Shown here piece by piece: positions 52,158 to 54,150 of a stretch of DNA of 64,000 bases (position 1 is its first letter; every line of letters starts with the position of its first letter). The position numbers and the translations under genes are program-made. The notes beneath the pieces were generated by a model. That model worked only from the letters and a program-made list of their open reading frames with translations, was not told the DNA's origin and searched no databases. Source of the DNA: Chitinophaga sancti (lineage in GTDB: Bacteria > Bacteroidota > Bacteroidia > Chitinophagales > Chitinophagaceae); the NCBI RefSeq assembly GCF_034424315.1, contig NZ_CP139972.1:6580501-6644500 (forward strand), read 5' to 3'.

Positions 52158-52228
52158 TGTCCTATAGTATAATGGTAGTACATCTGATTTTGGTTCAGAC
52201 TGTCTAGGTTCGAATCCTGGTAGGACAA
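52158..52228 (+). tRNA. tRNA-Gln (anticodon TTG)
   Basis: The acceptor is TGTCCTA/TAGGACA, with D-arm TAGTATAATGGTAGTA and an anticodon arm TCTGA-TTTTGGT-TCAGA giving TTG. The T-loop is TTCGAAT and the discriminator A. It is followed by a terminator and then by remnants of an integrase, so it may have served as the attachment gene of a mobile element. Confidence 0.96.
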
Positions 52229-52242
52229 CTTTAAAGATTTTT

Positions 52243-52277
52243 AAGCCAGTTCTGATTTTATCGGAACTGGCTTTTTT
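52243..52277 (+). terminator. Terminator of tRNA-Gln
   Basis: AAGCCAGTTC (52243-52252) pairs with GAACTGGCTT (52264-52273), followed by six T in all. Confidence 0.9.
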
Positions 52278-52321
52278 CTTTTACCGTGGCGGGTTTTGAG
52301 AAAAAGTAAAATCAATGATTG

Positions 52322-52380
52322 GTGTACCCCAGCGTGTACCCCAACAATAAATAGGGGTATATTTGATACAGTATAACCCC
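52322..52380. repeat. GTGTACCCC repeats beside the integrase remnant
   Basis: GTGTACCCC occurs twice (52322-52330 and 52334-52342). A reverse-oriented relative GGGGTAT (52354-52360) and AACCCC (52375-52380) follow. Integrases of this type bind short repeated arm sites next to their own gene, so these may be arm-type sites of an old attachment region. No second copy of the tRNA 3' end was found downstream. Confidence 0.5.
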
Positions 52381-52386
52381 TTTACT

Positions 52387-52898
52387 ATGGGCATCAAATT
52401 ATACCTCAAAAGGCCAGATGCAAAGGCCGAAACCACGATATTTGCCCGGATCACTTATGAGCCTGGGCCATTTAAATATTACCTGCCTGAAAAAAAAGCC
52501 GCAATACTGGAATAATAAAGCACAACGGGCTGCAAGGGTAAAAGACTTTCCCGAATATTCTGAATTTAATGCCAGATTGGATAATCTGGAGATGGTGATT
52601 AAGGATTCATACAGGAAATACCTGAAGGACCATAATAATGAAATTCCATCCTTTATAGCATTTAAAGAGGTGTTAGATTTTGCCTTGGGGGAAAAGATGG
52701 TTATAAAATGGACCTTTTTTGACTTTTTTAAGGACTTTATTGCCCGTAGTGGTAAAGGTGAACGTATTAGCCCAAAGACAAAAAAAAGTGATTGTAAAGA
52801 GCACGAATAAGGGCTATTCAGTTGTATTAAATCATCTTGAAGAATTTCAACTTACTTATAAACGAAAAATTGATTTTGAAACTATAGACCTGGTCTTT
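52387..52898 (+). pseudogene. Broken tyrosine integrase (arm-binding and core-binding parts)
   Basis: The ATG at 52387 opens MGIKLYLKRPDAKAETTIFA, the N-terminal arm-binding domain of Bacteroidota mobile-element integrases. The frame breaks at an A8 run (about 52490-52497), after which the -1 frame continues with PQYWNNKAQRAARVKDFPEY and the long linker helix. A second break at another A8 run (about 52783-52790) leads to VIVKSTNKGYSVVLNHLEEF, the SAM-like core-binding domain. The catalytic domain is absent, because the sequence runs straight into an RHS core after IDFETIDLVF. It cannot encode an active integrase. Confidence 0.8.
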
Positions 52899-53864
52899 CA
52901 CAATAGTGAGCCTTTATTGGAGGAAACACACTATTATCCATATGGACTGACGATGGAAGGAATATCTTCTAAGGCAGTGAATAGATTAGAGAATAAGTTT
53001 GGATTTAATGGGAAGGAGAAGCAGAATAAGGAGTTTGGAGATGGTAGTGGTCTGGAATGGTATGATTATGGAGCGAGGATGTATGATGGGCAGATTGGCA
53101 GATGGCATGTCATTGATCCATTATCAGAAAAATCAACCCGTTATTCTCCTTATGTTTATGCATTAGATAATCCTATTAGATTTATTGATCTGGATGGAAG
53201 GGAAGCAAAAGATAACAAAGGTGAGCCTCCAATCCGGAGATGGACCGTTTTCCCTAGCAATTCAAAGCTCGAACTTCCTAATATTTCTGAAGCAATAAAG
53301 AATGATATATTTGAGGCTGATAATAAGCATCGGGGATTTGGATTGCTTCCAGGTCGTACAATCGGAAATGCTGCAAATACTGACCTGGTTGAAGAATCAA
53401 TAGCGTATGCCAATAACCATGCTGGAACATCAACTAAAAAGACTATTTTTCCGGGATTAATTAGTATTCTTGATGATCCTTTGATTCTTAATATATCTAC
53501 AAAATTTGATGGTAATTCACTTATGCTTGTAAGAAAGACGACCAGGAGTCACATCGCAGAGGATAAGGTTGAACATAAAGTCGAAAACGCATCAGAAATT
53601 TCCGCGAATGCTGAAGCCGGAGGCGATGGTAGCGGAAAGAAATCCGGCACAAAAGGAAATGCAAAAGTAACTGCATCGTATAAAAACGGCAGTACTGTAA
53701 CAAATACGAATAATAGTAATCAAACGGCTCAATATAATGATGTTCAAATATGGGTATATAACGCCCAAATGCAAATTACTTATACTATAATAGTGGATGG
53801 TGCATCAGTAAGAGTGGATAAAGTTGTTAATACGGTTATATATTCCGATCAGAAATTGAAATAA
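52899..53864 (+). CDS. RHS-repeat core fragment with a novel C-terminal tip
   Basis: The open frame has no methionine of its own at the junction; the frame can start at a TTG near 52719 in the integrase remnant. About 98 residues form the RHS-associated core: EETHYYPYGLTMEGISSKA, NKFGFNGKEKQNKEFGDGSG, YDYGARMYDGQIGRWHVIDP and SPYVYALDNPIRFIDLDG. After DG a roughly 215-residue variable tip follows (RWTVFPSNSKLELPN to the end), rich in Asn, Thr, Ser and Gly and predicted beta-rich. RHS tips are typically polymorphic toxins. I recognise no known toxin family here, so the activity is undetermined. AT-rich composition sets it apart from its neighbours. Confidence 0.7.
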   Translation, partial: HNSEPLLEETHYYPYGLTMEGISSKAVNRLENKFGFNGKEKQNKEFGDGSGLEWYDYGARMYDGQIGRWHVIDPLSEKSTRYSPYVYALDNPIRFIDLDGREAKDNKGEPPIRRWTVFPSNSKLELPNISEAIKNDIFEADNKHRGFGLLPGRTIGNAANTDLVEESIAYANNHAGTSTKKTIFPGLISILDDPLILNISTKFDGNSLMLVRKTTRSHIAEDKVEHKVENASEISANAEAGGDGSGKKSGTKGNAKVTASYKNGSTVTNTNNSNQTAQYNDVQIWVYNAQMQITYTIIVDGASVRVDKVVNTVIYSDQKLK

Positions 53865-53865
53865 T

Positions 53866-54093
53866 ATGAAAAATATAGATTATTTGAGGGTAAAGGTATA
53901 CGTCTTTATTGCATTATTCGCATTCACATTTGGTTGGACATTTCCCACAAAAGTGAATATCCGCAATATTGAAGGAAACACTTTTTATGATACAACATTT
54001 AGTTATGCCGAGTTTGGATTAATATGTACTATTGGTTTTGGTCTGACTCTTCTAAATGATTTTAAAAAGCGAAGAGATAGTGATGAATATTAA
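53866..54093 (+). CDS. Small two-helix membrane protein, putative immunity protein
   Basis: 75 residues starting one base after the RHS-tip stop codon. Two transmembrane helices (about 10-26 and 48-62) flank a polar loop with NIRNIEGNTFYDTTFSYAEF, and the C-terminal tail is charged (DFKKRRDSDEY). Genes placed directly after an RHS C-terminal tip usually encode the matching immunity protein. A membrane-embedded immunity protein would fit a toxin that acts at the inner membrane, but this is inference from position. A terminator follows at once, closing the pair. Confidence 0.6.
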   Translation: MKNIDYLRVKVYVFIALFAFTFGWTFPTKVNIRNIEGNTFYDTTFSYAEFGLICTIGFGLTLLNDFKKRRDSDEY

Positions 54094-54113
54094 TTAAACC
54101 GCATTTTAGATTC

Positions 54114-54150
54114 AAAAGGGGCTGTATGAAATTTATTTACAGCCCCTTTT
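54114..54150 (+). terminator. Terminator of the RHS tip/immunity pair
   Basis: AAAAGGGGCTGT (54114-54125) and ACAGCCCCTTTT (54139-54150) form a perfect 12-base-pair stem ending in T4. Confidence 0.88.

What the first reader, a model, noticed from the sequence alone, without database searches (positions are those of the whole stretch)
52158..54150. Orphan RHS toxin-tip and immunity pair left in the scar of a tRNA-Gln-linked mobile element
Beside tRNA-Gln lies a broken tyrosine integrase, frameshifted twice and cut off before its catalytic domain. It reads straight into the last part of an RHS core (EETHYYPYG onward), followed by a variable tip of about 215 residues that I do not recognise. A 75-residue two-helix membrane protein starts one base after the tip and a terminator closes the pair. 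RHS tips downstream of the core are normally polymorphic toxins with immunity genes next to them. The tip family and the immunity protein look undescribed, and the small size of the scar is unusual.
Basis: partly seen in the sequence, partly recalled or inferred. Interest (0 to 1): 0.78.

Follow-up and report, generated by a model that had tools for sequence, protein, structure and literature searches.

The report
Beheaded RHS toxin tip with immunity
Next to a tRNA gene lies the cut-off tail of a bacterial RHS toxin gene with a small membrane protein that probably protects against it; a related genome carries a different tail pair at the same spot, so this site may have lost its RHS gene more than once while keeping the tail.

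Summary
Beside tRNA-Gln (52158-52229) lie the first ~174 residues of a tyrosine integrase with two frame breaks, joined in frame near 52901-52914 to the end of an RHS core (TIGR03696, 55.9 bits), a 220-residue tip, and a 75-residue two-helix protein starting one base after the tip's stop; a strong hairpin follows. No search found a relative of the tip. The 75-residue protein has one, 93% identical, on a 978-base contig.

Relatives change the origin story. One near relative (G048) has a full two-gene RHS operon in this interval, between a carbon-nitrogen hydrolase gene and SusC. The window genome and G052 both lack that hydrolase, and both join the same integrase, at different points, to an RHS core end with different tip/immunity pairs. 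The integrase pieces diverge like neighbouring coding sequence (dN/dS 0.06), so truncation is recent and probably independent. Simplest reading: one deletion per lineage, from inside the element's integrase to inside a resident RHS gene, left the tail pair behind the integrase start. So: an orphan RHS-tip/immunity module, a known kind, with a singleton tip. Toxicity and immunity are inferred, not shown.

The parts
52158..52229 (+). tRNA-Gln (TTG), presumed integration site of the element; no second copy of its 3' end in the window
52358..52365 (+). TATATTTG, a TAnnTTTG-type -7 promoter-like element (motif recalled) just upstream of the integrase start; also in G052, but seen in only 1 of 7 other integrase loci checked
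   Evidence: tRNA-integrase spacer: 134 of 154 aligned bases identical to G052, gaps left out
52384..52901 (+). Truncated tyrosine integrase, residues about 1-174 of about 426, in three frames, no catalytic domain
52901..52914 (+). Joint between integrase and RHS core (G052 has its joint elsewhere in both genes)
52914..53201 (+). C-terminal end of RHS core
   Evidence: TIGR03696 hit; 77.8% DNA identity to the RHS gene at the same locus in G048
53202..53864 (+). 220-residue variable RHS tip, candidate toxin (stop codon included)
   Evidence: no relatives
53866..54093 (+). 75-residue two-helix protein, candidate immunity protein
54113..54151 (+). Hairpin closing the pair, probable terminator
54342..57830 (+). 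Right flank (SusC upstream region and gene) where homology with G053, G045 and G048 resumes (G052 from 54334)

Best explanation
This is an orphan RHS tip/immunity module: the 3' end of a resident, tip-polymorphic RHS operon, beheaded by a deletion. Order before the event (inferred): tRNA-Gln, integrated element beginning with its integrase, carbon-nitrogen hydrolase, RHS partner gene, RHS gene with tip, immunity gene, SusC. One deletion from integrase codon ~174 into the RHS core removed the rest of the integrase, the element, the hydrolase and the front of the RHS operon. The tip is most likely a toxin once carried by RHS; the 75-residue hairpin protein, probably with both ends in the cytoplasm (positive-inside rule, recalled), most likely protects the inner membrane or periplasm from it. 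What remains sits behind the integrase start and its promoter-like site, so the likeliest present use is expression of the immunity gene, the tip being kept passively or as raw material for recombination with other RHS genes. Shown: anatomy, relatives' gene orders, missing hydrolase, selection pattern on the integrase. Inferred: the deletion itself, toxicity, immunity, target, expression.
For: G048 has tRNA-Gln, hydrolase, RHS partner (1085 aa) and RHS gene (1467 aa), then SusC, no integrase. Its RHS core is the closest to the window core among the loci fetched (233 bits; next 161; best elsewhere in this genome 139). Hydrolase ortholog: at this site in G053 (the query), G045 (95%) and G048 (89%); in G000 and G052 the best matches anywhere are 27-33% identical. 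A single deletion predicts both losses. Integrase pieces G000/G052: dS 0.97, dN/dS 0.064 over 123 codons, against dS 0.95 and 0.070 for the flanking glycosyltransferase, so the integrase was probably intact for most of the divergence; RHS core against G048 dN/dS 0.07. In this genome 12 of 14 open RHS frames have a short ORF close behind. Published orphan modules have this layout, mostly lack translation starts, and orphan immunity genes can be expressed (PMC3150448, passages; PMC3967940, passages).
Against: No relative shows the full pre-deletion order with both element and RHS operon. Of 32 relatives read at this site, only 3 have the hydrolase there and only G048 a whole RHS operon, so for G000 'lost' rather than 'never had' rests on parsimony. 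Flank trees do not place G048 firmly beside G000. The core's dS to G048 (1.7, 57 synonymous sites) exceeds the flanking gene's (0.93), so the two RHS genes may not be strict orthologues. G052 and G053 are 99.8% identical on the right flank (5691 bp) yet differ in content, so whole-allele exchange may also happen. The promoter-like motif is found in only 1 of 7 other integrase loci. No toxicity data; the tip model failed (pLDDT 31).
Confidence: 0.55

Rival explanations
1. The RHS tip/immunity pair was cargo of the tRNA-Gln element itself; internal deletions of the element left integrase start plus cargo end.
For: Integrase and RHS remnants are directly joined in both genomes found to have the integrase at this site; homology with G053 ends at the tRNA 3' end.
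Against: Does not explain the missing hydrolase, needing a second deletion; RHS sits here without integrase in G048; of 15 integrase loci (14 places) in other genomes only G052's has an RHS core within about 1.5 kb; no second tRNA end in the window.
Confidence: 0.22
2. The whole tRNA-to-SusC interval is an exchangeable allele: integrase-tip-immunity segments move between strains by homologous recombination through the conserved flanks.
For: G052 and G053 share flanks at 97.2% (1709 bp) and 99.8% (5691 bp) but have different contents.
Against: No patch of about 84% identity is seen in G052's flanks next to the joints (98.9-100% to G053 in the last four bins before the tRNA end, 98.8% in the first right bin), as a donor from the window's lineage would leave; it does not itself explain how the joints arose. 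It can act together with the deletion model.
Confidence: 0.12
3. The tip is decayed filler: no longer toxic, and the 75-residue ORF is a chance or unrelated small membrane protein.
For: Singleton tip, no start signal, neighbouring integrase is frameshifted, no family and no usable model.
Against: 220 codons of tip and the 75-codon ORF are open while the integrase piece has two breaks; a 93% identical full-length relative of the 75-residue protein exists.
Confidence: 0.15

Closest known systems
Orphan rhs-CT/rhsI and cdiA-CT/cdiI modules (PMC3150448 and PMC3967940, passages seen)
   Same: Fragment of conserved core, variable tip, small gene directly behind; lacks the front of the gene; the same site in a relative carries a different pair.
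   Different: Not downstream of a main rhs gene: no main gene remains here and the fragment is joined to an integrase start; tip not found on any full-length gene searched.
Polymorphic toxin systems with RHS (PMC3482391, passages seen)
   Same: RHS core, then tip, then immunity; the passages name Imm-CdiI and Imm17 as immunity proteins made of two membrane helices.
   Different: The 75-residue protein has one W and no WxW, and neither it nor the tip alone matches Pfam up to E 1.
[quoted passage not shown]
   Same: Immunity-type gene beside a tyrosine recombinase (rAID is described from Bacteroidales).
   Different: Here one candidate immunity gene with its toxin tip, and a broken recombinase; no array of immunity genes.

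Membership tests
Orphan RHS-tip/immunity module | Fragment of RHS core precedes a variable tip | tested here: met
   TIGR03696 55.9 bits, residues 72-160
Orphan RHS-tip/immunity module | N-terminal RHS portion and export signal missing | tested here: met
   Joint with integrase at 52901-52914
Orphan RHS-tip/immunity module | Small gene immediately downstream | tested here: met
   75 aa, one base after the stop
Orphan RHS-tip/immunity module | Same tip found on a full-length RHS gene elsewhere (common, not universal) | tested here: not met
   No credible match in 79 genus, 394 family, 396 order, 395 phylum genomes (sets overlap), none in the genome-contig scan (close relatives only) or the protein search (no positive control). 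Met for the G052 tip
Orphan RHS-tip/immunity module | Tip inhibits growth, neighbour protects | not testable with these tools
   needs expression
Imm17 | Two membrane helices, WxW and an R between them | tested here: not met
   Two helices and R33 in the loop, but only one W and no WxW; no Pfam hit up to E 1
rAID | Tyrosine recombinase followed by an array of immunity genes | tested here: not met
   Recombinase truncated, one gene
Functional integrative element at tRNA-Gln | Integrase with catalytic domain and two att copies | tested here: not met

The most novel reading that the evidence does not exclude
The site is a recurrent expression platform: the integrase promoter and 5' half are kept while different RHS tip/immunity pairs are brought directly behind them, because retained, expressed immunity is selected after the RHS gene is lost. 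Two lineages with different joints and different pairs would be two captures of the same kind, a simple route by which integrase-linked immunity loci arise.
Probability: 0.15. Interest if true: 0.62.

Novelty: new member of a known kind. Interest (0 to 1): 0.4.

Why it matters
It gives a tip and a small membrane protein without described families and with a testable pairing, and a comparative case for how an orphan tip/immunity pair can arise away from any RHS gene: by deletion between a tRNA-linked integrase and a resident RHS operon, apparently twice. That bears on why toxin tips and immunity genes outlive their carriers.

Tried and rejected
Weak tip matches in 7 family genomes (E 0.002-0.03): 5 lie in long frames that look by eye like unrelated proteins (a synthase-like enzyme, a glycosidase, a kinase, two surface proteins) with short local similarity; the other 2 contain stops. 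An earlier look printed the wrong strand for 6 of the 7. A weak Pfam match of the 381-residue frame, PI-PLC-X (E 0.06, 13.4 bits against a cut-off of 23.1, residues 140-201, spanning core end and tip start), does not appear with the tip alone; three other weak ones lie in the integrase part. PDB sequence matches at E 0.17 or worse: taken as chance. A weak match of the 75-aa protein in G032 (E 0.005) has two stops. The tip model failed, so no fold search was run. PADLOC: nothing; PHROGs: nothing for the tip, one weak hit for the 75-aa protein (E 0.049, unknown function). Among 6647 frames of the fetched loci the tip's best matches are the same 5 weak ones (E 0.006-0.11, then 1.4 and worse) and the 75-aa protein's best is E 0.08. 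First codon comparisons of the RHS core were out of frame and were redone. Sigma-70-type promoter counts are near chance (12 against 8.4, sd 2.8). Paper searches: listings; Chitinophaga with Rhs and polymorphic toxin returned 0. The genus name is my inference; no call names the organism.

Limits. admits proteins of about 177-563 residues. admits about 509-1620 and had no positive control, the window's own protein being outside that range. Searches use few exact peptide patterns, so they find close relatives only. One search's printout was cut, so integrase neighbourhoods were counted instead. After re-checking I lowered the main confidence from 0.6 to 0.55, because hydrolase and RHS operon are at this site in few of the relatives read.

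Full report
What is there. ARAGORN places tRNA-Gln(TTG) at 52158-52229. Behind it comes a promoter-like TATATTTG at 52358 and the start of a tyrosine integrase. Against an intact relative (G010, 426 aa with Arm-DNA-bind_5, Phage_int_SAM_5 and Phage_integrase domains) the window holds residues 1-37, 40-136 and 133-174 in three successive frames, so there are two frame breaks and no catalytic domain. The third frame runs on without a stop into the end of an RHS core (TIGR03696, 55.9 bits), a 220-residue tip and a stop at 53862-53864. One base later a 75-codon ORF begins, modelled as two helices (mean pLDDT 68). A hairpin at 54113-54151 follows (z -4.75).

Is the tip known? The tip alone has no hit up to E 1 in Pfam, NCBIfam, PADLOC or PHROGs. 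In the 5.8-billion-protein collection the only match is the window's own protein (proteins of about 177-563 residues), and none of 993 word-sharing candidates of about 509-1620 residues scored E 0.01 or better (X-padded query, no positive control). Six-frame genome searches found it in 1 of 79 genus, 1 of 396 order and 1 of 395 phylum genomes, each time the window's own; in 394 family genomes 7 others had E 0.002-0.03, judged chance. These sets overlap. The 75-residue protein has one relative, 93% identical over its length, on a 978-base ENA contig, and one weak match with stops in 78 other genus genomes.

The site in relatives. All 79 genus genomes match the query made of the end of the glycosyltransferase gene and tRNA-Gln, though in the rows listed at least G007 matches only at the tRNA. 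I read the stretch behind tRNA-Gln in 32 relatives (stretches of 3-12 kb, picked from the hits; the remaining 46 genus genomes were not read). Three have the hydrolase gene there (G048, G053, G045), two have RHS core (G048, G052), one has the integrase (G052). G048: tRNA-Gln, hydrolase, RHS partner gene, RHS gene, SusC; the two RHS proteins match RHS/YD repeats, DUF6443 and TIGR03696. G052: tRNA-Gln, integrase to about residue 130, the last part of an RHS core, a 246-residue tip with a weak alpha/beta-hydrolase match (PGAP1, E 0.0027, below cut-off), a 201-residue ORF, another broken core scrap, SusC. G053 and G045: tRNA-Gln, hydrolase, SusC. Over the left flank G000 is 84.6% identical to G048, 84.2% to G053, 83.8% to G052 and 82.7% to G045, so none of them is clearly its sister.

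Same kind of thing, different pair. The G052 tip matches in 9 of 79 genomes (G052 included), at 10 places; 9 of those 10 loci have an RHS core close by, and three lie in frames of 1506-1524 codons. So that tip is of the sort that ends normal RHS genes. In the window's own genome the protein search gave 18 matches with RHS core. Of the 17 others, 3 are scraps (two of them neighbours); of the 14 open RHS frames, 12 have an ORF of 81-189 codons starting within about 130 bases of the stop, and the other 2 are followed by longer frames cut by the end of the locus (the script picks the next ORF mechanically, and that the tips are unrelated to each other is by eye). The window's tip matches none of them.

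History. The integrase pieces of window and G052 differ by dS 0.97 and dN/dS 0.064 over 123 codons, the neighbouring glycosyltransferase by dS 0.95 and 0.070, SusC by 0.60 and 0.16. An integrase already dead in their ancestor would not show such a low ratio, so it was probably intact for most of that time. The joints differ in both partners, so the truncations look independent. The hydrolase ortholog has no close copy in either genome with the joint and is present behind tRNA-Gln in G048, G053 and G045. One deletion from inside the integrase to inside an RHS gene lying where G048 has it explains the loss of integrase end, element, hydrolase and RHS front together, and why no second tRNA end remains. 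The cargo model needs an extra deletion, and 14 of 15 integrase loci in other genomes (13 of 14 places) have no RHS core within about 1.5 kb.

Results against this reading. No genome seen has element and RHS operon together. The hydrolase is at this site in only 3 of 32 relatives and a whole RHS operon in 1, so the ancestral order is a parsimony argument, stronger for G052 (nearly identical flanks to G053) than for the window. The core's dS to G048 is 1.7 with few sites, above the flanking gene's 0.93. G052 and G053 have nearly identical flanks (97.2% and 99.8%) yet different contents, so gain or loss here is quick and allele exchange may take part. The promoter-like motif occurs upstream of only 1 of 7 other integrases, and three such motifs lie in 52230-53870 against 0.8 in shuffles. 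That both deletions end in the RHS core could be chance, short repeats, or selection to keep immunity; I cannot separate these.

How it would work. In the passages I saw, orphan modules that were tested are functional toxin/immunity pairs, mostly lack starts, and an orphan immunity gene is expressed (PMC3150448; PMC3967940). Two-helix membrane immunity proteins are described (PMC3482391, passages). I therefore expect the tip to act at the membrane or periplasm and the hairpin protein to guard the membrane. This is inference; the tip gives no usable model.

Verdict. An orphan RHS-tip/immunity module by anatomy, with a singleton tip, a known kind; its probable origin by beheading of a resident RHS operon beside a tRNA-linked integrase is the more interesting part.

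Noticed in passing
L018, G000:C1:513099-513236: Another RHS core scrap with a stop inside and a 184-residue ORF with a lipoprotein-like start behind it: a second orphan in the same genome.
   Followed up: partly
L011/L019, G000:C1:2178450-2178916: Two tandem RHS core scraps with short tails followed by a 212-residue ORF with a lipoprotein-like start.
   Followed up: partly
L084 (G052), 8121-8340 minus strand: A broken RHS core scrap after the first pair, a hint that the operon once had a second tip.
   Followed up: partly
L085 (G054) and L112 (G070): A second tRNA-Gln in inverted orientation about 1 kb after the first.
   Followed up: no
L083 and L084: G052 and G053 are 99.8% identical over 5.7 kb beside a completely different insert.
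   Followed up: partly
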